Shown: piece by piece, positions 1-35,166 of the stretch
Numbering within the stretch: position 1 is the first letter of the stretch
Layout of the letters: each line of letters opens with the position of its first letter
Assembly: GCA_008802785.1 (NCBI GenBank)
Contig: VUYT01000028.1
Span: 62,001 to 126,000 of the forward strand
Direction of reading: 5' to 3'
Length of the DNA stretch: 64,000 nucleotides
From: Symmetrospora coprosmae
Taxonomy: Eukaryota > Basidiomycota > Cystobasidiomycetes > Symmetrosporaceae
Notes under the pieces: model-generated
What the model saw: the letters and a program-made list of their open reading frames with translations, nothing else
Database searches by the model: none
What the model was told of the DNA's origin: nothing
Made by a program: the position numbers and the translations under genes

Positions 1-1885
1 CAGCCCCGCTCGGATGTCAGCCCTTACGAATGGGTTCCATCGAGCACGCTCCTCTCCAATCCCGTCAAGGAGACCAGCAAGTCTTCCAGTGACGCGTTGT
101 CTACAACAGACACGGCCGCTACAGACAACCAAGAGCCAACGAAGTCGAGCTCTGGCTCGTCCAGCTTGGCGTCCAGCACGACGTCTGCTTCGCTTCCTTC
201 TGACTGGCCCAGCAAGATTGTGCCGCAGCAAGCAGCAGATCCTCCTGAGACTGACGACAAGGACGAAGAGGGCTTCGATGCGGGTGCGACTAGTGATGCA
301 GATGCTCCGCCCGCGGGAATGGTCCCTGGAGCAGAAGTCGAGCACCCGGCAGACTCGACGCTCATATCGATACTCCTCACGTCGGCACTCTCGTGGTCTT
401 GGCTACTGGCCCAGAGCGATGCCTCGGCTCAAGTCTTCGCATATATGCCTCAGCTCATTGCGGAGGCCCTCGATATCGACCGATCTCAGGTCACGACTGA
501 CAGTCTCGAAGCTTGGGAACCGCCTGGATGGCAAGGAGCAGGCGCTGACATGTCGGTGCCTGTCTTGTCGTCCGACTCTTTGCTTGCGCAAGCTGACATC
601 CTTCCTTGACAGCCGCTCGGTCTGGCTTGGCTATATACCCACGCTTCAGGTCGATCCTCTGGCAGCCCTGATTGTCAACCGGTCCAGCGTCTTCTACCAC
701 AGCAAGAGGGAACTGACAAAGCAGCTAGCAGGCAGTGTCGACCCAGTCCTTCCGATATTATCCTTCTACGGCCTCACAGCAGAGCAGGAGGACGCCACGG
801 GAGGCAATGGCGGAGCTGCGGCACAGGAGACTGCGACTTTGAGCAACAAGAAGACCGCCCTCATCGCTTCCGCCGCCGCGCTGGGCGCCATCATCTTGGG
901 TGTGGGCGGCTTCTTTGCCTCGCGATATGCCATGAGGAAGCGCAAGGAGTTCAAGCACAGTCAGCAAGGAGGCAGCCAGGGCTATGGCGGGGACGATGAC
1001 GGGGAGGATATGCAGGAGACCGCTCGAGGTATACAGCCGGGCTTCCAGCCGCTCGTCCTTCCGCCTAATCGCTACCTGAACCCGCCCAAGTCGCCAGAGG
1101 ACCCCGACCCGGAAGGACAGGAGGATGCACTGGATCGGGACTCGCTCTCGCGATATCCCGTAACAGAGCGGCACCAGACGGAGGATTTCTACAACAGTGC
1201 GCCTGCCGCCAGCTTTACGAACGAGAGCTCTATGCCGATGCCAGTCCCGATGTCTGTGCCGGTACCAGTGCCTATGCCAATCCCGGCGGATGCGCTCATG
1301 GCGACTCCGAGCCGAGGGGACGATGGTCGACAGTTATTCGATACTGGACCGCTGTCACCGCCGGTGCCAGATTCAGCCTATCCCTTCCCTCATCAGCGCC
1401 CAAGCCCGGGCCCGGCTCAGCACCCGCAGTCGAGCGCGTTTTACCCCATGTCTTCCACGCCAGGAGCCAACTCGCCGCCTGTGAACCAGTCCTACCTAGA
1501 CACCGTCCGCTCCGGCTCCGGCAGCTCGGTACAATCCGAGATGCTGCACACACGACGACGCGTCTCGAGCATGGATATCCCCATCCGCAATACGTGGTGG
1601 AAGCATCAATCGCAGTGGGAGAACCCGACGCAGGGTCAAGGGGCGAGTAGCGGCTCGCCGCCTCTGCCTGCGCTTCCGCCGCAGTCGCAGCCGCTACAAC
1701 CACTGCCGTCCTACCTCCGCGAGAGCCGACCGTACTCGGGCTCGTCGACCTACTCGACGCTGCGCAACTTTAACGGACCGCCTGGTTTCCCGAGCAGCCA
1801 GCCCGGCACGCTGAAAAGAGGGCATAGGAGGACATCAACCAAAATCTCGACGCCGTTTCTGCAGGACAATTCGCTGATGCTGTAG
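1..1885 (+). CDS. MSB2: Msb2-like signalling mucin, C-terminal part (5' end outside window)
   Basis: Open at the left edge in frame 1. Exons 1-551 and 613-1885, joined by a phase-2 intron of 61 bp ending TTGACAG. The 607 visible residues begin with a Ser/Thr/Asp-rich stretch. An HMH-like extracellular domain follows; its key pieces are the strings LIAEALDI, VWLGYIPTLQVDPLAALI and SVDPVLPI. One membrane helix follows (about codons 785-930 of the DNA, ending in SRYAMRKRK), then a cytoplasmic tail of about 320 residues rich in Pro, Ser and Gln. In the Msb2/Hkr1 family this layout belongs to plasma-membrane sensors upstream of Cdc42 and the filamentation/Hog MAPK pathways; in smuts Msb2 helps sense plant surfaces. 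The mucin repeat region is missing because of the window edge. The intron donor (GTCGGT) is unusual, so that junction is the least certain point. Confidence 0.65.
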   Translation, partial: SPARMSALTNGFHRARSSPIPSRRPASLPVTRCLQQTRPLQTTKSQRSRALARPAWRPARRLLRFLLTGPARLCRSKQQILLRLTTRTKRASMRVRLVMQMLRPREWSLEQKSSTRQTRRSYRYSSRRHSRGLGYWPRAMPRLKSSHICLSSLRRPSISTDLRSRLTVSKLGNRLDGKEQALTCRCLSCRPTLCLRKLTSFLDSRSVWLGYIPTLQVDPLAALIVNRSSVFYHSKRELTKQLAGSVDPVLPILSFYGLTAEQEDATGGNGGAAAQETATLSNKKTALIASAAALGAIILGVGGFFASRYAMRKRKEFKHSQQGGSQGYGGDDDGEDMQETARGIQPGFQPLVLPPNRYLNPPKSPEDPDPEGQEDALDRDSLSRYPVTERHQTEDFYNSAPAASFTNESSMPMPVPMSVPVPVPMPIPADALMATPSRGDDGRQLFDTGPLSPPVPDSAYPFPHQRPSPGPAQHPQSSAFYPMSSTPGANSPPVNQSYLDTVRSGSGSSVQSEMLHTRRRVSSMDIPIRNTWWKHQSQWENPTQGQGASSGSPPLPALPPQSQPLQPLPSYLRESRPYSGSSTYSTLRNFNGPPGFPSSQPGTLKRGHRRTSTKISTPFLQDNSLML

Positions 1886-11135: not shown

Positions 11136-12914
11136 CTACGCTGCCTGCCTGGACACTGGCGCGCCCGTCACATTCTGGTCGTCCTGCCTTTCTCCTTCTG
11201 TTGACGTTGAAACATCCTCCCCTGGGCCAGCCTGCCACGAATCGTAGGCCTTGCCCGCCATCATCATAAGGAGGAGGACGGGCAAGTGGATTAGGCTGGC
11301 CGTAAACAGCGAGCGCGCTGGTCCATCTCTGGGATCTCTGTCCGACGCGCGGACATCCTTCCCTTGCAGGCCCATCGTTCTCGCCCGGTCGAGACTCGCC
11401 TTGCTTCCTGCTCTCCAGAACCTCCAGGCGTACAGGCCGAGCGCGCCACTCGGAAGCAAAGAAGCCATCCCGACTGTCCAGCTCGTCAGGCCAACAAGAG
11501 GCGCACCGATGGCGGCCGCCGCACCTGCGGCTACCGTCCACCTGAGCGAGACGCGTGCATTCATGCCCGGGTTGACTGCGCTGAGCATGCGGTACCCTCC
11601 GCGCGCATACTCTGAGCGAATGCTCCACGAGAGTGCGTTGAAGTGCGGGAACTGCCACGCAAAGAGAATGGTAGCGAGGATCCACGCGCCCGCCTGCCCC
11701 GCAAACGGATCGAGGCTGTTTGTGCACGCAGCCCAGCCCATGAGCGGGGGTATGCCGCCGACGAGGGCACCGACCCAGGTGTTTGCGACGCTGAGCCGCT
11801 TCAATGGCGTGTACACGCCCGCGTAGAGGACAATGTTGAGCACGCCGAGCGACGCGGTGAGCGGGTTCACGGCGCCGTATAGCAGCGCTGTGCCGGCGAG
11901 CCCGCTAGCCGAGGCGAAGCCGAACGCGTGCAGGGGCGTTATTAGGTGCGATGGCAGAGGCCGCTTGGCTGTGCGCGGCATTTGCGCATCGTAGGGTATC
12001 TCCATGAGCTGGTTGAAGGTATTGGCGCTCGCAGAGCATAGCGCGGTCCCCGTGGCCATTGCGAGGAGGGTGCTCGTGCGAAAGCTGTTGACGAGGGTCG
12101 ACGCGCTGGCACTCTCGCTCGCGGCAGCGGAGGATGCAGCCGTCGCAGCAGCGGCGTCGGAGAGAGGAACGAGGCCGGGCGTGGCCAGCGTTGAAGCTGA
12201 GGTCGCACCGAACGTGTCCTGCACGAGCGCCTCCATGGCTAATGCCGCGGCGCCCGGATCGGTTGGGCACATGGCATATCCGACCATGGCTGTCAGGACG
12301 ACAAAGGCCGACAAGCGGCCCTTTGCGAGCTGCTTGTAGATCTGAAGCTGAGCGTGAAGCGAGGCTGGGCGCGTCGCGAGTGGCCGCCAGGAGGATGTCG
12401 GGACTGCAATGGGAGGGATGGTGTGCGCCCGCGAGTCGGCGAGGTCAAAGTCAAAGGAGGGTGTCCGCGGCGCGACTGCGGCGCTTGCGGGTACAGACGC
12501 TGATGGCGACGAGACGGTGCTCCTTGATGATAGCGATAGAGCAGATTCATTGCTGTGCCGCAGCCTGTGCTGCCGCCCAGCGAGGAAGCTCTTTCGAAAG
12601 AAGCTCGTCAACGGCGGATCTGAGCTGCTCGATCCTGCTGCAGGAGAGGACGTGGATGACGAAGACGACGACGACGGTGGGAGAGTGGCTGATGCAGCCG
12701 CTGGTATTGCTGCTGCCGATGTGCTCTGATAGCGGCGTCTCGGGCGTTGTGGTGCATTGCGGTGGATGCGACTGGTCGACGTCGACGTCGACGCCTGGCA
12801 CGGGCAGCAGCAGGACGCCGACAGCGAGAGAGCAGCAGCAGCATGGCGGATGGAGCTCTGGGATGACGACGACGCCGCCACGGACATGGTCGACGTTATC
12901 AGAGAGTAGCTCAT
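11136..12914 (-). CDS. COX10: Protohaem IX farnesyltransferase, mitochondrial (haem A synthesis)
   Basis: A single exon of 592 residues. A long Ser/Ala/Arg-rich N terminus, typical of a mitochondrial presequence plus linker, precedes the UbiA-type prenyltransferase fold beginning near YKQLAKGRLSAFVVLTAM (about 193). The first Asp-rich motif lies in NTFNQLMEIPYDAQMPRT (about 298-315), followed by several membrane helices and the second motif region FAWQFPHFNALSWSIR. The enzyme farnesylates haem B to haem O in the inner membrane for cytochrome oxidase assembly. The same frame stays open upstream to 13766, but the upstream part lacks conserved sequence and overlaps the neighbouring gene. The ATG at 12914 is therefore taken as start. 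A low-complexity insert (about 215-275) sits between the first two helices. Confidence 0.93.
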   Translation of the reverse strand: MSYSLITSTMSVAASSSSQSSIRHAAAALSLSASCCCPCQASTSTSTSRIHRNAPQRPRRRYQSTSAAAIPAAASATLPPSSSSSSSTSSPAAGSSSSDPPLTSFFRKSFLAGRQHRLRHSNESALSLSSRSTVSSPSASVPASAAVAPRTPSFDFDLADSRAHTIPPIAVPTSSWRPLATRPASLHAQLQIYKQLAKGRLSAFVVLTAMVGYAMCPTDPGAAALAMEALVQDTFGATSASTLATPGLVPLSDAAAATAASSAAASESASASTLVNSFRTSTLLAMATGTALCSASANTFNQLMEIPYDAQMPRTAKRPLPSHLITPLHAFGFASASGLAGTALLYGAVNPLTASLGVLNIVLYAGVYTPLKRLSVANTWVGALVGGIPPLMGWAACTNSLDPFAGQAGAWILATILFAWQFPHFNALSWSIRSEYARGGYRMLSAVNPGMNARVSLRWTVAAGAAAAIGAPLVGLTSWTVGMASLLPSGALGLYAWRFWRAGSKASLDRARTMGLQGKDVRASDRDPRDGPARSLFTASLIHLPVLLLMMMAGKAYDSWQAGPGEDVSTSTEGERQDDQNVTGAPVSRQAA

Positions 12915-13129
12915 GACTGCGCCCGACTTGTATGCTGTGACGGCGGATAGGCGAGAGCAAGAGCGCCGTAGGTGAGCGACGCGGTGTGGTTCACCCTCCT
13001 CTCGCTCGATCCAACGCATTAATAAGCAGCTGGTGTAGCACGTCTCATAGGTGCACAGGACTATGCTACACAGCAGAGCATGTGTAGGCCCGACGAAGAA
13101 CTTCGTGCGTTGCTTCGTTCTGCAAGCCA

Positions 13130-15010
13130 TCACCCGCTCGTCAGGAACGTCCGCATGCGATCCAGCGCAGGCGCCACCTTGTCGCTCATGAACGTCGGCA
13201 CAAGCAGAAAGCCGTGCATCTCGTCCTCCTCTTTGTACTCTTCCACCTCTAGTCCCGCTACCCGCAGATTCCCAGCCAAAGCATCGCACTCCGCCGAGAA
13301 GACCTCCGCGCCGCCGCTGAAGATGATGATCCTGGCGGTAGACAGGCAGAGAAGGCAGGTAGAGGAGGCCGCAACCATCATCAGTGGCATATGACGGCAT
13401 GAACTCATCGGCGCCAGCCTGCGTGCCTGCGCGCGCACTCACCGAGGAGGATTCTGCTTCAAGGCCCTTGAAGCTCCGGCGATCCGCTGCAGTGAGGCCA
13501 TGGATGATTCTAGCGGTACGACAAGATAGACGCTCGTCAGCGTCAGCAGATCTGTCTCGAGGTGATGCTCCGTCAGGCCGAGTCCTGAAGCGGCCGTCCC
13601 AACTGACTGAGTGCTGGCGAAAAGTACGGATGACTGCGCCCAAGCCTGGCAATGCTCTCGCGCGGGGCACTGGTCGCTGCTGCACCATGATAGCGTTTGT
13701 TTGTGCCCGACGTGTACGCAGCCGCAGCCTGCGACAGCATTGTCGGATGGACTGTTGACGTTCCATCAGCTACGACTCGAGCCCTCAATGGCTTATCCCA
13801 TCATCACGATGGGTGCACGCACTGATGTCGAAGTGGACGGCTTCGCGATAGGGATGGCTGAACGTGAGATCGCCCCAGGGCGAGTACCAGCACACGCGAG
13901 TGGGCATCAGAAGCTTGTCTGGACGCTCCGACGTGGGCTTCTCCGATAGGCGCGCGAGATACTGCATGAGGGCGCAACCGAGCCCTGCGCCAGCCGAGTC
14001 GCCCGCGAGCGCTATCCTGGTGTAACCTGCCCGGACGAGGTATGCGTAGGCTGCTATGACATCTTGCAGGGGAGCGGGAAAGGCCGTGTCGGCCGAGACG
14101 GACTTGCGGTAGTTAACGCCGAGGACGGGAAGTGAAGTCAGGCGGGCGATGTCGAACACGCGCGATGCTTCCAGGGGGTGTCCTGCGTGAGTGAGTGTGT
14201 CACCGTCTGCGGGTGCGTCTCGAGCATAGCACGGCAGACCTACCTGTGATGTAGCCGCCCCCGACAGCATAAAGCACGACCTGCACGTCGCCGCTTGGAG
14301 GATTCGATGCAGCAAGGTCTTCCCGTGTCGTGTGCTTGCCGGCCTTCTCGCTCCTGATCCAGAAGCCAGCGATCTCTTTCTGCAGTGTAACCTTGCCCGT
14401 CGGATCAAGGGCTTCATCCTGTATCCACCTCTTGCTTTCATCCCGGCTGTCGAAAGCCAGATCGACTGGCAACATCGAAGTGCCCCTTCCGTACCACAGC
14501 TTGGCGAGGATGGGCACGCTCCGCGTCGTGACGGGTGAGGCAGCGGGTGGCAGCCCGAACGTGATGGCCCAGAGCAGGCGGGAGAGGACGGGGTATGTGA
14601 AGCATTGCCATGTTGTCCACCCTTTCCTACGCGGCCACAGGGCGTACCCGACGTAGCGCGAGGAGAAGCTGGGCGGCACGACGTAGAGGAAGAGAGAGAC
14701 CACGCCCAGCCAGGTGGGCAGCGTCAGGAAGACCCACGAGACGCGCAGGTAGCGGAAAAGCAGCGTCAGCGGGCCTTTTGGCGGGATGCGCCGCTCCAGG
14801 AAAGGCAGGCAGGGCCGCCATGGTGAGAATGGGATAGACGGATAGTTGTGCTCGAGCTCTGCGAGACGGAAGGCATATGAAGGTTAAGCGCGCCTGCACC
14901 ACCGATCCGCGGCACCTCGCGAGGTGGCGGCGGATTCGCGTAAGCGCACCGTCTCCGCTGGCGCGCTCAAACACGTTGCGCGGGTGCAGGAAGGCATAGC
15001 CGGATTCCAT
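13130..15010 (-). CDS. Membrane-anchored alpha/beta hydrolase (HSL/steryl-deacetylase-like)
   Basis: Six exons on the minus strand: 15010-14950, 14858-14244, 14182-13823, 13751-13608, 13509-13443, 13331-13130; 482 residues. An N-terminal hydrophobic segment (VSWVFLTLPTWLGVVSLFLY, about residues 50-70) suggests a membrane anchor. The catalytic domain contains the nucleophile elbow GDSAG (about 286-290), SPWGDLT, GGAEVFSAE and the catalytic His in DEMHGF (about 455). The oxyanion loop reads AVGGGYITG where this family usually has HGGG. The layout resembles ER-anchored esterases such as yeast Say1, but the substrate cannot be told. All splice phases agree (1,1,1,1,2). The gene diverges from the EBP gene with 272 bp between starts. 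Confidence 0.82.
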
Positions 15011-28905: not shown

Positions 28906-31275
28906 ATGAAGCGTAAGGCGGATGCTGCCTCGGACGAACAGCCGGACGGAGCGAATGACGAGAAGAGGCTGAGAGGCAAGCCGGCGAGTGCAGAACTTGT
29001 GGAAGCTGCAGGTGACCAGCATGCGGGGCAATCTGGCGAGAACGGAGGAAAGAGAGGCACTGGGTGCGCCGGTACACACGACTCCATCGGCACGGGCGAA
29101 GGACTCGCAACTCCCGAGCCCGATTCAGATCATTCAGAGTACGATCCTTTCGATGACGACGATGCGGACGGCGGTCCGCGTGACCCAACCTTCCGCAAAT
29201 TGCAGTTACACAAGAGGGCTGCCCAGCTCGACGACGCTTTGTCAAGAGACGAGAAAGCGCCACGGATGCCGAAGACTTCGGGACATACATGGGCACATAC
29301 GTACACAGCCTTTGTGCTAGCCCAAGCCCAGACGGAAGAACACCATCCCAACAGTTGCAGGTGTGTGCAGCACCTGAGCTCTTCTCTATACATGCGTGTG
29401 CTGATAGCTTGCTAATACACACTCAGGCCAAGCGGCTGGGGCGGCAACGTGGCATGCGATGGCCAGTCTCATGACAGGGGCTTCATGTGTCTCTTCTGCG
29501 GCCATTTAGTCGTCCAAGCAGTCTCTTCCGAACGGGACCCTGGCGCAAGCACGCTCACCAACCACCGCACAGGGTCACACAGAGGGCGCGGAGCCAGAAC
29601 GTTTCTACGAGCTTTGGCCAGAGCTGAACCGGACAACATGAACACACTGAAGTCATATGCCGATTCTCAATTCTTCACACGTTTCTTCATGCAGTTCCTG
29701 GCTGAAGGCGAGATTGCGGATCAGGCCGTCAAGGACATGGTAGACAGGTAAAATGTGGATGGTGATCAGCAAAAGAACAACCTTATTCCGGTACCCTACA
29801 CCCGCGCGCGCGCGGCGCCCGATTGGGTCCAGCAATACCCATCTCAAAGAACTGCAATTGAGCGGAGCACTATGCGCGAATACACAGCCGAGGAGCTCCG
29901 CGCGCTGCCGCCTCTGGCCCAGAGAGGTCCTGCACACGCCAAGCGCAGGCCCCGTCCGGTTCGCGCAAAGCTGCCGGATGTCACGCGAACGCAAGAAAGC
30001 GGCGTCAAACGAACCGCACTTCGACCAATGCCTAGGCCACCGCTCCCTGCTGTCGGCCCTTCGGTCACCGCTGCTGGTGCCGGCAACACAATCTCTGGGT
30101 GTAGTCAACCCACACAGCACCGCCCAGCTACCCCAGATGACGGAGTTGGGCCTGCAGAGACTAGCGCAATAGACAAAGACGCGGCGCGAACAAGCAATAT
30201 ACGGCACAATGCTACCCAGCGCTTCACAGGGCAAATGAAGGGCAAAGGACGAGAGACTTATGACGAGCGATCTGACGGCGCTTTACTGGAGGAGAGGCAC
30301 AGGAGGGCAAAAGAGGGGTGGCGTGCTCGCATGCTCTGGATAAAGGGCCAGGCGGAATCGAATGTCTTGCCCCTGCCATTATCTCAAGCAGCCGTTCCCC
30401 CTGCTGTCCGTATCGGCGAAAGAACCGCCTTATCGCAGACCTCCGAGGTCGAATCGGGCACCTTCGAGCGAGACCGCCATCACGATGACGAGTCTTCAGA
30501 CACAGCTTTGAGACGATCTGGCTCGACCTCGACCGATGGGCCCGACCTTGCCCCTGCCGGTTCTAACAGCAGAGCACGGTCCCCGATTGACCAGCTCGAG
30601 CATACGGATCTGTCCACCGCGTCCGCACCCATTGGCTCAGATCAGCCAACTGGAGACGCTCATTCGCCTGTCCCCGGCACAGCCACATCGCTCAGAGGCA
30701 AAGAAGAGAAGTCAGTCGCCCCGGCGTCGGACTCTGCCGAGTCGATGACGATTCGTCAGCACGAGCATGGTCCAAGATCGCTTCCGGATGCGCAGAAGGC
30801 AGCAGCGTGCACACCGACTGTCCTGGACTCGTCAGATGGGTCCGATGCAAAGCAGAAAGAGGCGGCAAAGTCAGTCCTGACAGCCGATCGGCCCAGCAAG
30901 AGTGAAGCTGGCAGCCGCTCCTTCAAGACAAATAGCGTGAGCGGCAGGAGCAGGGTCAACGCTATCGAGATCAAGGATGAAGACGAGGACTTCCCGCCCG
31001 GGCTCCAAGCATACAAGGCTCTGCTGGAGAAAGCGCGCATAAGGGATCTCAGCGCTCTCAAGACCATTCCACTGGACAAGATCGACAAATGGGTGTCCTG
31101 GCTGGCGGACGTAAGGATGCATCCCGTCTTCCGGCAGTCGAGACGTAGGCTGAGACATTCCTCGCGTATGCCGCTTGTATAGCAAGATGAGTTCAAGGGA
31201 GACGAGGCATTCAAAGACATGGCATGCCAGTTCATGTTTGTGATGGCGCTGAAGGAGAGCATGCAGGAGCGCTGA
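28906..31275 (+). CDS. Zinc-finger/helical-module protein B (tandem paralogue 2)
   Basis: Exons: 28906-29360, 29427-29747, 29850-31110, 31183-31275; 709 residues. It is paralogous to gene A: TSGHTWAHTYTAFVLAQA matches GRSWAHWLIVVV in A. A phase-2 intron lies just before the finger in both. The finger CDGQSHDRGFMCLFCG (162-177) keeps the C-x4-H-x5-C-x2-C spacing, followed by a candidate His pair (NHRTGSH). A helix-rich segment (FLRALARAEPDNM ... FMQFLAEGEIADQ) parallels LFLRALSTAELRSDLL in A. One helical module begins LQAYKALLEKARIRDLSALK (644), and the C terminus is CQFMFVMALKESMQER. The middle is disordered and acidic/Ser-rich. The third exon's acceptor (29849) is the only one in phase but is not certain. 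Function unknown; DNA binding is inferred from the finger. Confidence 0.65.
31003..31110 (+). repeat. Helical module copy B (protein-level repeat)
   Basis: Codes residues 644-679 of gene B: L-Q-A-Y-K-A-L-L ... KIDKWVSWLAD. It ends at a phase-0 intron of 72 bp, the same place and length as the intron after copy A2. Confidence 0.6.
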
Positions 31276-31462: not shown

Positions 31463-33338
31463 TCACGGGTCTATCTCTAGCACTGGCATTCTATCTCTGA
31501 GCTCACTCCATGCCCCGTCTGGTCTGACCCTCCAGCATTCGAAATGATGATTCGTCCCCTTCTGCTCATGGAGCGAATACTCGGTCCCGCACCCGCCAGC
31601 GCCGGGGCTCTCGCGCACATACACCAGGCATGCAATCCTGCTGTGGAGCAGGGCCATGCTGCAGAGGAGGCACGGCTCGTGCGACATGAACACTGTGAGG
31701 TTGGTGAGGAGGTAGTCGGACGCGGGCATGTGCGGGCGTGCGCCGGTGCGGTCGAGGTGGGCGACGCGCTCGAGGAGATTGAGGACGGCATGCTGGAGCG
31801 GGTTTGTGCTCGATTGCCGCGTGTCGTGGGATGTGGCCAGGACGACGGGCAGGCAGGCAGCCCCTGCTTCCGGGTTGTAGCCACGGCGATGCCGCGCCGG
31901 ATCAAAGGACTCGGTCACGGTGCACACGACAGGATGGTCCGCCGCTCCATCGCGTTCAATGGCCTCTGCGCGCACCACGGCGCTCTCGCACATGTCGCGC
32001 ATCCATGCAATTTTTCCTGCGGTCCAGGACTGCAGCCTCTCCTTTGCGAGGACGTCCTCCTTCACGGGGACGAGCGAGACGGGCCAGCAGTCTCTCGACC
32101 ACTCTTTGACTTGTTTGAGCGTGCGCGCTGGGCTGTGCGGGACGTCGAGAACCTCTGGCTGCTGTAGTGCAGAGCGCGGGAGCGTGCCCAGGTGCGACGA
32201 GGCGAGGAGCAGCTCGACGAGCGATGGGAGCGACATGAGCTCGGTCGGGAAGAGGAGGATGAGCGCCTGCTCGTAACCGTCAGAGGTGGGGGCTGCCGCC
32301 GCGAGATGCTCGATGCCGGCGGGACTCTCTGCAGCGGCTGTCGACGAGAGCGGCTCGATCCGCTTAATGCGCCGGCAGTGTCGCATCGCCGGCTGCATGT
32401 CGAGGCTGGCGTGGCGCAGAAAGGCGAGCACGGATCCCGAGCTGCGCGGGTTGATACGCAGTGCGTATACTTGCACTGTAGCACGCACGCCATACCGGTA
32501 CGTCTCAGCGAGGGTGTCGCGCACGATGGACGCCAATTGTGTCGAGCGGGTCAGGCGGCGACGCACTCGTTTCTAGGGCCATGTCTTCTGGTGACAGGAT
32601 GCTGGTGACTTGATGTACAGGCAGAGAGGCGATGGGCAGGACTTCTGCTTCGTTCCGGGTATCTGCCTGTGCTGGCATTCGCAATTTCTGTGCTGGCTGC
32701 ATGTCCAGCGAGGTCGGCGGCCCTTCTTCAGGAGCCAAGGCCGGCACTGTGCGGACGGACTCGCCGGCTTGCACGCCTTCCTCCTCGTCGCTGTCACCTC
32801 TGCCATTGGCCATGAGCATGAAAGCGTCCTCCTGATTCTCTGGCGTAGGTGGACGTCCTCTCTGCACGACGAGCTGGCCCTTCTCGCCAAAGGCGACGCC
32901 GTGCCCGTAGAATATGCAGAGCTCCTCGCCCTGCGGCACATCCCTTGTTGTAGTGTACCGAATGGACACGTTGCGCTTGTCGAGGGTGTACGAGACGTTT
33001 GGCAGCGAGTCGGAGTGGTTGAACAGGCTGCCAATGCCCAGGGCGAGGGCGAGGTCGCCCGAGGGCTTTGACCATGTGAAGAGGTACGACTCGAAGATGG
33101 TCCCGCTGAGCGAGTGCGCAGCGTACTCGGATGCAGGGACGACGAGGGCAGGCGATACCTCGACGAGCGTGTTGCTCGGGATGGCTGTGCGCGCATACAC
33201 GCCTCTGCCCTTGAGCGGGTCGACGCGGATCTTGAGCAGCTCGCTCCGGCGGGTCAGGCGGATCTCGCTGGTGTCGCCGTGGTCGTCCTCGTCCTCATCC
33301 TCTGCGAGCTGGTGCTGATGCTGGCTGTCCATGGCCAT
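31463..33338 (-). CDS. TAD3: SET-domain / tRNA adenosine deaminase subunit TAD3 fusion
   Basis: Two exons on the minus strand: 33338-32567 and 32475-31463; 594 residues. Exon 1 codes a compact SET domain: GRGVYA (44-49), GSLFNHSDSLPNVSY (about 103-117) and GEELCIFYG (137-145). Exon 2 codes a full TAD3/ADAT3: VYALRINPRSSGSV and RRIKRIEP at its N terminus, HAVL (486) where catalytic deaminases have HAE, and the zinc ligands PCLLC (526, 529). TAD3 is the non-catalytic partner of Tad2 in A34-to-inosine editing of tRNA. The 91-bp intron (GTGCGT ... CTACAG, phase 1) joins the frames. If it is retained, the SET frame stops at 32505, giving a 277-residue SET protein. The TAD3 frame has no ATG of its own before its conserved start. 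Confidence 0.8.
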
Positions 33339-33540
33339 GGTCTCTGATATGCTATGCTATGGCTGCATAGCGAGGCCAAGAGATGGTGGAGGTTGGAAGG
33401 AAGGAGAGCTAGGTAGGCAGGGTAGGGAGGTAGGTAGGTAGGAGACCGCCCCTCTCGTCCTCCGCACAACCACAACATCCCGCTCTCGCACACGGTATAT
33501 ACGTGCACGCTGCACGCGACACTATCGCAAACATATCGCC
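33339..33540. promoter_or_regulatory. Divergent promoter, SET-TAD3 / GRASP
   Basis: 202 bp between divergent start codons, holding a GGTAGGTAGGTAGG run (about 33428-33441) and a TATA-like GTATATACG at about 33493-33501, some 45 bp upstream of the GRASP start. Confidence 0.4.
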
Positions 33541-35166
33541 ATGGGAGCAGCAGAGTCGCGCTCGCTCACGTCGACGACGGCCGACTCGTCGATTCGGGGG
33601 AGGATTGGGTTCCATGGTGGGTAAAGCGAGCAGCGCAGCGCAGTGCAGCGCAGCGAGCAACAACAGAACAGTGAGCTGATGGTGATGACTGTGCTGTGCA
33701 TTATATTCCTCTGCACTTTGCGCCCCGCCTCTGGGTTCCATGCGATGCGACGCGCCCTTCGACGCGACGGCGACAACGACGACAACGATGGCGACGCCTG
33801 TGATGGTCTGGGCCGTGCTCTCGCCCCCGCCCGTCCGCCCGCGCAGTCCTCCGAGTCGCCGACAACAGCCCAGCAGCAGCAGCAGGCATTGAGCCGTTCT
33901 TCGACTACCTCGTCGGCGTCAATGGAGAGGCGCTCAGCTCGGCGAGCATGCAGGGGAGCGCAACGGGGTCCGTGGAGGAGATGCTCGCAGGGGTCGTCGA
34001 CGCCCACGAGGACCGCGAGCTCAACTTGCAGATCTGGTCGAGCAAGCGCGCCGAGCTGAGGGGTGTGTGCACGGGACCCCAATCTCTGCAGCTGTAAAGT
34101 CACGGAGCTGCACTGACCCGACAAGCGTCCGTACCTCCCTGCATTTTCCTCAGACGTGACCGTCATCCCGTCGACTGTCTGGACAGGGAACGACGACGCT
34201 CCATCATCCTCCCAGTACGGACAAGGGGCTACCGACTCGCAGCCCTCACTCCTCGGCCTCAGCCTCCGTCTCTGCAACCCGGACGGGGCCCTCGAAAAAG
34301 TATGGCACGTCCTGGAGATCTTGGAAGACTCTCCCGCAGAGAGTGCAGGCTTGGTCCCCTTTGGCGACTACATCCTGGGCTATGCCGGCGGGGTCCTGCA
34401 CAAGGAGGCCGACTTCTACCGCCTGGTCGAGGACCACGTCGACAAGCCGCTCCGCCTCTTTGTGTACAATGCCGATTTCGACGTCACGCGCGAGGTCGTC
34501 ATTGTGCCCAACCGCGCGTGGAGCGCTTCGGGCGAGGAGAAGGGGCTGCTCGGGTGCGGAGTGGGCTTTGGCGTGCTGCACCGCATCCCAAAGCCAAAGC
34601 CGCAGGAGGTGGAGGCGGGGTCACGCGGGGTTGTCGGTCAAGGCACAGGCAGGAATGGCGCAGGACGTGAAGCGTCGTACGAAGACGATCAGGGATACCG
34701 CGGGCTGGGAGGGACGACGGTTCAGCCATCGCCCTATGCCAAGCAGCCATCACAAGCTTTATCAAAAGCGCAGAAGCAGCCTGCGCCACCGCGCATGCAG
34801 GCTTCCCTAGCACAGCCAGCCACGCCGCCGTCACTTCAACAACAACAACAACAACAGCAGCAGCAGCAGCAGCGCTCAATCTCCCCATCCGGCTACAGTG
34901 CTCGGCAAAAGGCAGCACCACCCTCTTCTGCCTCGCCGTCGTACTCGCCAGCCGGCTCTTCTCGGGCACCGCGCTTTGGGACGCAGGGTTTCAGCAGCAA
35001 TGGCTCCTCCACGCCGTCGTCAAGTCCCGGCTCGAGAGCCTTCATGTCTGTGCCGCAGGGAGGCCAGTACGCGTCGTCGTCGCTGCAGCAGCCGAGGGGC
35101 CCGAGCGGGGGAATGATCAGTCCGAGGAGCAGTGTGGCAGAGGTGATTGCGGAGGAGGACGAGTAG
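33541..35166 (+). CDS. GRH1: Golgi reassembly-stacking protein (GRASP/Grh1)
   Basis: Three exons: 33541-33616, 33847-34062, 34154-35166; 434 residues. The protein starts MGAAESRS, with Gly2 and Ser6 fitting an N-myristoylation site. The first GRASP PDZ domain is rebuilt by the first splice (GFHVLRVADNSPAAAAGIEP), and the second follows (KVWHVLEILEDSPAESAGL, then FGDYILGYAGG). The block GLLGCGVGFGVLHRIP marks the end of the paired PDZ module (about residue 205). The tail is Pro/Ser/Gln-rich with a polyglutamine run coded by CAA/CAG near 34838-34872. GRASPs tether Golgi or ER-exit membranes and act in unconventional secretion. The 230-bp first intron is long for this window. Confidence 0.93.

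What the first reader, a model, noticed from the sequence alone, without database searches (positions are those of the whole stretch)
31463..33338. SET-domain and TAD3 fused through a single intron that can also switch between two products
The TAD3 frame contains the family's conserved N terminus but has no ATG before it; a stop (TAG) lies just upstream. A phase-1 GTGCGT...CTACAG intron (32476-32566) joins the SET frame to TAD3 and creates a Met codon at the junction (A + TG). With the intron spliced, one 594-residue fusion is made; with it retained, the SET protein ends after 277 residues. One transcript could thus yield a stand-alone methyltransferase-like protein or a fusion to the tRNA-editing subunit, tying protein/ribosome methylation to A34 editing.
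Basis: partly seen in the sequence, partly recalled or inferred. Interest (0 to 1): 0.75.

Follow-up and report, generated by a model that had tools for sequence, protein, structure and literature searches.

The report
Histone methyltransferase fused to tRNA-editing subunit
In this fungus, as in many relatives of mushrooms, rusts and smuts, a histone-type methyltransferase and a subunit of the enzyme that edits tRNA appear to be made as one protein joined by ordinary splicing, and there is no sign that the joining intron works as a switch.

Summary
On the minus strand, exon 1 (33338-32567) and exon 2 (32475-31463) join through a 91-nt phase-1 intron (32566-32476, GTGCGT...CTACAG) into one 594-residue SET-TAD3 protein. 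The fusion is not private to this genome: 126 of 148 retrieved proteins matching a TAD3 profile also match the SET profile, from all three main basidiomycete subphyla. The SET part is closest to fission-yeast Set7 (PDB 5h6z). The TAD3 part keeps zinc ligands but no catalytic Glu; a TAD2-like gene lies elsewhere in the genome.

The intron position looks conserved: four relatives' SET frames leave homology at the same codon, and two mushroom-type frames carry unlike 16-residue inserts there. A model of a homologue starts the TAD3 fold about 27 residues upstream of the junction, so the intron probably cuts TAD3 itself.

The switch is not supported: retained-intron tails differ, two mushroom-type inserts keep the fusion in frame, the junction Met is rare (16 of 128), and shuffled introns hold a stop 49% of the time. 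Best reading: a constitutive Set7-TAD3 fusion, recorded in databases but not found described in my paper searches. No RNA data were available.

The parts
32567..33338 (-). Exon 1: residues 1-257 plus the first base of codon 258; SET domain, acidic linker and probably the first ~28 residues of the TAD3 module
32904..33209 (-). SET domain (residues 44-145), Set7-like; GRG, NHS..PN and YG motifs present
   Evidence: Pfam PF00856 E 1.7e-12; PDB 5h6z E 3.3e-23, profile 1.5e-44; columns
32568..32651 (-). Residues 230-257, the probable exon-1 part of the TAD3 module (EAEVLPIASLPVHQVTSILSPEDMALET)
   Evidence: homologous segment of P0014 (239-266) lies inside the range aligned to yeast Tad3 (model 240..568 to chain 7..319); occupancy 0.98 in 60 rows
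32476..32566 (-). 91-nt phase-1 intron, GTGCGT...CTACAG; the in-frame TGA of the SET frame ends at 32505
   Evidence: same position inferred in P0018, P0157, P0161, P0207
31463..32475 (-). Exon 2: last two bases of codon 258 to the stop; TAD3 N-domain and deaminase-fold domain (H486-A-V488, P525-C526, C529)
33339..33540 (.). 202-bp interval between the divergent start codons of the fusion and the GRASP gene, presumably holding both promoters
   Evidence: start codons; promoter role inferred

Best explanation
The locus encodes one routinely spliced protein: a Set7-type lysine methyltransferase domain, an acidic flexible linker, and a complete TAD3, the non-catalytic subunit that pairs with TAD2 to turn A34 of tRNAs into inosine. 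SHOWN: the fusion frame, the same two-domain proteins in other basidiomycetes, one detected copy of each half in this genome, SET motifs in place, the pseudo-catalytic TAD3 site, and a TAD2-like gene elsewhere. INFERRED: the fusion is the cell's only TAD3, its C-terminal part works with TAD2 as in yeast and mouse, the SET part is an active methyltransferase carried on the editing enzyme, and the intron is an old intron inside TAD3 that is spliced routinely. The SET substrate is unknown; histone H3K37 is the first candidate.
Against: No RNA or protein data for this organism. 22 of 148 TAD3-matching proteins lack SET: 7 unnamed-source frames and 15 NCBI-named models. 14 of these 15 hold the linker's LPF motif, so they may be cut-off models, but true splits are not excluded. 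Two genomes seem to carry the halves as separate models on one contig (P0140/P0151, P0104/P0172; equal contig lengths). Set7-like proteins that appear to end by themselves occur in some basidiomycetes (Meira; Serendipita, Cantharellus, Exidia), and the SET tree does not make fused rows one clade.
Confidence: 0.85

Rival explanations
1. Regulated intron retention: one transcript gives either the fusion or a stand-alone SET protein of 277 residues.
For: Retention does put a stop 20 codons downstream in the SET frame, and the SET frames of four relatives also run into stops after the junction.
Against: Tails are unrelated in sequence and length (2 to 78 residues). In P0103 and P0135 the insert has no stop. 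Shuffled introns have a stop 49% of the time. The retained form would also leave the cell short of TAD3, a subunit of an enzyme that is essential in yeast (recalled).
Confidence: 0.05
2. Two separate genes in this species, with an unseen first exon or promoter for TAD3.
For: Some basidiomycete models are split, and the solved Set7 and TAD3 chains from other organisms are separate proteins.
Against: No ATG precedes the conserved TAD3 N terminus in its frame. TAD3's first ~28 residues appear to lie on the SET exon. Relatives fuse the halves at the homologous place and the nearest ones leave the SET frame at the same codon.
Confidence: 0.06
3. The fusion is real but the SET part is only a structural or docking module without methyltransferase activity.
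For: No activity data; the linker is of low confidence and the mutual orientation of the domains is not fixed in the model (pTM 0.54).
Against: The columns kept in SET-only Set7-like proteins (GRG, NH..PN, EL.I.Y) are kept to a similar degree in fused ones.
Confidence: 0.15

Closest known systems
TAD3/ADAT3, non-catalytic subunit of tRNA A34 deaminase (yeast 7bv5, mouse 7nz7, T. brucei 8aw3)
   Same: TAD3 N-domain and deaminase domain matched, zinc ligands kept, catalytic Glu absent, TAD2-like partner in the genome
   Different: N-terminal Set7-like methyltransferase and linker added; the solved TAD3 chains matched are only 317-369 residues long
Schizosaccharomyces pombe Set7 (5h6z, 5ww0)
   Same: Best sequence match of the SET part and best SET fold match of the homologue's model
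   Different: S. pombe Set7 is a small stand-alone protein (solved chain 169 residues); here it is the N-terminal part of a TAD3 fusion, and the substrate is untested
Database entries such as 'SET domain-containing cytidine deaminase-like protein' (Phanerochaete sordida), 'tRNA-specific adenosine deaminase subunit tad3' (Rhodotorula toruloides, Thecaphora frezii), 'histone lysine methyltransferase set7' (Moniliophthora roreri)
   Same: Same two domains in one protein
   Different: Source-given names only; rows covering 90% or more of the query are 28-36% identical to it
Fusarium FgTad2-FgTad3-Ame1 mRNA-editing complex (PMC11087585, abstract and passages seen)
   Same: An extra protein part acts at the N-terminal, tRNA-binding domain of Tad3 (for the fusion: by position only)
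   Different: Ame1 is a separate DUF726 protein, not a SET domain, and the interaction is reported to originate in Sordariomycetes

Membership tests
TAD3/ADAT3 | Sequence and fold similarity over N-domain plus deaminase domain | tested here: met
TAD3/ADAT3 | Zinc ligands (H, PCxxC) with the catalytic Glu lost | tested here: met
   H486-A-V488, P525, C526, C529; 148 of 148 filled rows lack Glu
TAD3/ADAT3 | A separate TAD2 with active-site Glu in the same genome | tested here: met
   L003 frames with HAE and PCLMC; PF14437 and PF00383 hits; assignment as TAD2 rests on motifs and context
TAD3/ADAT3 | Dimerises with TAD2 and supports A34 editing | not testable with these tools
   needs biochemistry or complementation
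Set7-like SET methyltransferase | Best match to S. pombe Set7 over the SET domain | tested here: met
   sequence; homologue's model
Set7-like SET methyltransferase | SAM-binding and catalytic motifs intact | tested here: met
   G44-R45-G46, N107-H108, P113-N114, Y144; motif roles recalled
Set7-like SET methyltransferase | Methylates H3K37 | not testable with these tools
   no substrate data
Set7-like SET methyltransferase | Stand-alone small protein | tested here: not met
   here it is fused; so it is a Set7-like domain, not filed as Set7 itself
Regulated intron-retention switch | Conserved alternative C terminus or conserved truncation | tested here: not met
   tails unrelated, 2-78 residues; two inserts without stop
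Regulated intron-retention switch | Both isoforms in RNA and protein | not testable with these tools
   no RNA-seq or proteomics available

The most novel reading that the evidence does not exclude
In Basidiomycota the wobble-editing enzyme carries its own Set7 lysine methyltransferase on the N-terminal tRNA-binding arm of TAD3, the arm that Ame1 uses in Fusarium to redirect the enzyme to mRNA. The SET part could then act as a built-in cofactor: it could hold TAD2-TAD3 at chromatin through H3, methylate a partner of the deaminase, or change substrate choice in sexual stages. That would couple a histone mark to A-to-I editing in one polypeptide.
Probability: 0.2. Interest if true: 0.8.

Novelty: new variant of a known kind. 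Interest (0 to 1): 0.5.

Why it matters
A fusion found in three basidiomycete subphyla suggests that the two activities are useful in the same place, yet my paper searches met no work that asks why a Set7-type histone methyltransferase should travel with the tRNA wobble deaminase. It makes a clear test possible: cut the SET part off, or kill its active Tyr, and look at inosine in tRNA and mRNA, at H3 methylation and at sporulation. It also explains confusing database names, where one gene is called set7 in one mushroom and tad3 in another fungus.

Tried and rejected
Switch by intron retention: rejected for lack of conservation, not by RNA data.

Alternative 49-nt intron 32524-32476: disfavoured, because relatives diverge at the 91-nt donor.

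Junction Met as a TAD3 start codon: disfavoured (M in 16 of 128 rows with a residue, 21 rows gapped), and TAD3's fold seems to begin about 27 residues earlier (a first-and-last range only, rmsd 10 A, so moderate evidence).

Sequence proof that the pre-junction segment matches the yeast Tad3 N terminus: not obtained; HMM alignments begin at profile position 26-27 for mouse and yeast and 53 for T. brucei.

Single origin of the fusion from a SET tree: not resolved. The label needs 10 changes, 5 forced by well-supported branches, but several 'alone' rows are frames that may be first exons of fused genes. The tree used 60 rows chosen by me from 270; a 61st, P0047, was dropped as too short. The shared intron position argues for one origin.

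Getting genomic DNA of relatives: one scan of viral contigs with P0001 found no relative. Genome contigs was not scanned; the metagenome cap was 0.

Papers: ten searches (listings only, 34 and 55 cut at 15 of 29 and 12 of 26) and passages of PMC11087585, PMC12884345, PMC10361152, PMC9145779, PMC9692433 and PMC9676040 showed no description of the fusion. A 2011 paper on the deaminase fold (NAR gkr691) is not held; from memory it treats deaminase domain fusions, so it could contain it.

Full report
WHAT IS THERE. The window lies in a 20-Mb genome of 77 contigs. On the minus strand a SET frame (33338-32505, 277 aa) overlaps a TAD3 frame (32566-31463) that begins with GTG six bases after a TAG and has no ATG before the conserved TAD3 N terminus. 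Removing 32566-32476 (91 nt, GTGCGT...CTACAG, phase 1) gives one 594-residue protein with a Met codon formed at the junction. My script, which tried a limited set of donor and acceptor patterns, found one other in-frame choice, 32524-32476.

WHAT THE HALVES ARE. Pfam finds SET (E 1.7e-12) and, just under its cut-off, the cytidine/deoxycytidylate deaminase fold. By sequence the SET half is nearest to S. pombe Set7 (5h6z, E 3.3e-23) and the rest to TAD3/ADAT3 of T. brucei, mouse and yeast; profiles sharpen both. H486-A-V488 and PCxxC are the pseudo-catalytic TAD3 site: 148 of 148 filled rows besides the own one lack the Glu, as reported for FgTad3, where it is Val (passage of PMC11087585). The own genome has one TAD3 hit; the second place is a TAD2-like gene with HAE and PCLMC (E 0.004). 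It has one strong Set7-like hit; the next is an unlike SET frame (E 0.007). These searches score only the best candidates, six-frame.

IT IS A FUSION FOUND ACROSS A PHYLUM. A search with the fusion returned 52 proteins, 49 with both halves; the exceptions are P0001 and P0002 (TAD3 only) and P0018 (SET only). Organism names cover Microbotryomycetes, Agaricomycetes and Ustilaginomycotina (Thecaphora, Exobasidium, Melanopsichium, Jaminaea); the placing of genera in these groups is recalled. A TAD3 profile gave 582 hits, the best 120 listed; a SET profile gave 1512, the best 120 listed. Scanning all 269 retrieved proteins with my two HMMs gave 126 with both, 22 TAD3 only and 121 SET only; the own fusion is a 127th with both. 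In 23 of the 126 the SET match covers fewer than 100 of 124 positions, often because the gene model starts inside SET. Because the TAD3 profile was built from fused proteins and only the best 120 were listed, these counts describe the neighbourhood of this family, not all fungi. Of the 22, seven are unnamed-source frames and 15 are NCBI-named models, 14 of which still hold the linker's LPF motif, so model truncation is likely for many. A SET-domain tree of 60 chosen rows places the window's protein in a clade of unnamed-source frames (100/98), joined with Microbotryomycetes (99/92), so a pucciniomycete host is likely.

THE INTRON. Four frames of relatives (P0018, P0157, P0161, P0207) follow the fusion through the linker motif PEDxxxE(T/L) and leave homology at exactly the window's donor, with Ser or Cys as the next residue. 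AGT or TGT there would give N|GT in phase 1. P0001 (95% identical) and P0002 (84%) are TAD3 frames that start inside the region of the intron. Two mushroom-type frames, P0103 and P0135, carry unlike 16-residue inserts at the homologous codon between closely similar flanks, as a retained in-frame 48-nt intron would. The gene model of Microbotryum intermedium (P0005) has ten extra residues there compared with its sister P0004. These are inferences from protein sequences, since no DNA of relatives was reached, but together they point to an old intron at this position. The adjacent GRASP gene uses donors of the same GTGNGT type.

THE SWITCH. Nothing found here supports it. The retained tails have 20 (own), 78, 2, 13 and 4 residues and no visible likeness. 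In P0103 and P0135 the insert keeps the fusion in frame. A shuffled own intron has an in-frame stop in 49% of 20,000 shuffles. The junction residue is M in 16 of 128 rows that have a residue there; V (52) and I (25) are commoner. RNA data would be needed to close the matter.

HOW IT LIKELY WORKS. The TAD3 part most likely pairs with TAD2 to edit tRNA A34, as in yeast and mouse. The SET part keeps the residues that SET-only Set7-like proteins keep (for example Tyr 144: 125/127 and 121/121), so it is probably an active lysine methyltransferase. S. pombe Set7 has been reported as an H3K37 methyltransferase needed for gametogenesis (title in a reference list; paper not read). In Fusarium, Ame1 binds the Tad3 N-terminal domain and enables mRNA editing in sexual stages (abstract and passages). 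A methyltransferase fixed to the same arm in basidiomycetes could tether or tune the deaminase; that is my speculation.

KNOWN OR NEW. Public databases hold this architecture under source-given names. Ten paper searches and the passages read showed no description; a survey of fungal SET proteins (PMC9692433) has no 'deaminase' in its main text. The held library is limited to open licences, and one likely paper is not held. I rate it a new variant of a known kind, of moderate interest, with the switch set aside.

Noticed in passing
33541-35166 (+): Divergent neighbour is a GRASP55/65 gene (PF04495 E 7.2e-42) with an N-terminal MGAAESRS that looks myristoylatable; introns 33617-33846 (GTGGGT) and 34063-34153 (GTGTGT). 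Only 202 bp separate the two start codons.
   Followed up: yes
L003:1498-1985 (-), i.e. G000:C11 about 481.0-481.5 kb: TAD2-like gene in pieces: frames with HAE and PCLMC motifs, probably split by an intron; the expected active partner of the fusion.
   Followed up: partly
P0153, P0155, P0156 (proteins of relatives): Three close SET frames all end after a similar LLG-L(E/D) motif in the linker, which may mark a further intron in those relatives.
   Followed up: no
P0160, P0162, P0163 (Meira and unnamed relatives): Set7-like proteins ending in the same FA(T/S)ISS tail, next to fused Exobasidium P0042 in the tree; may be a true fission of the fusion.
   Followed up: partly
[quoted passage not shown]
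   Followed up: no
11136-13766 (-): 876-residue frame with a UbiA prenyltransferase domain (PF01040 E 8.1e-53) at residues 557-790 only.
   Followed up: no
29755-31182 (+): 475-residue frame with no Pfam match at E 0.01 beyond the 3' end of the fusion gene.
   Followed up: no
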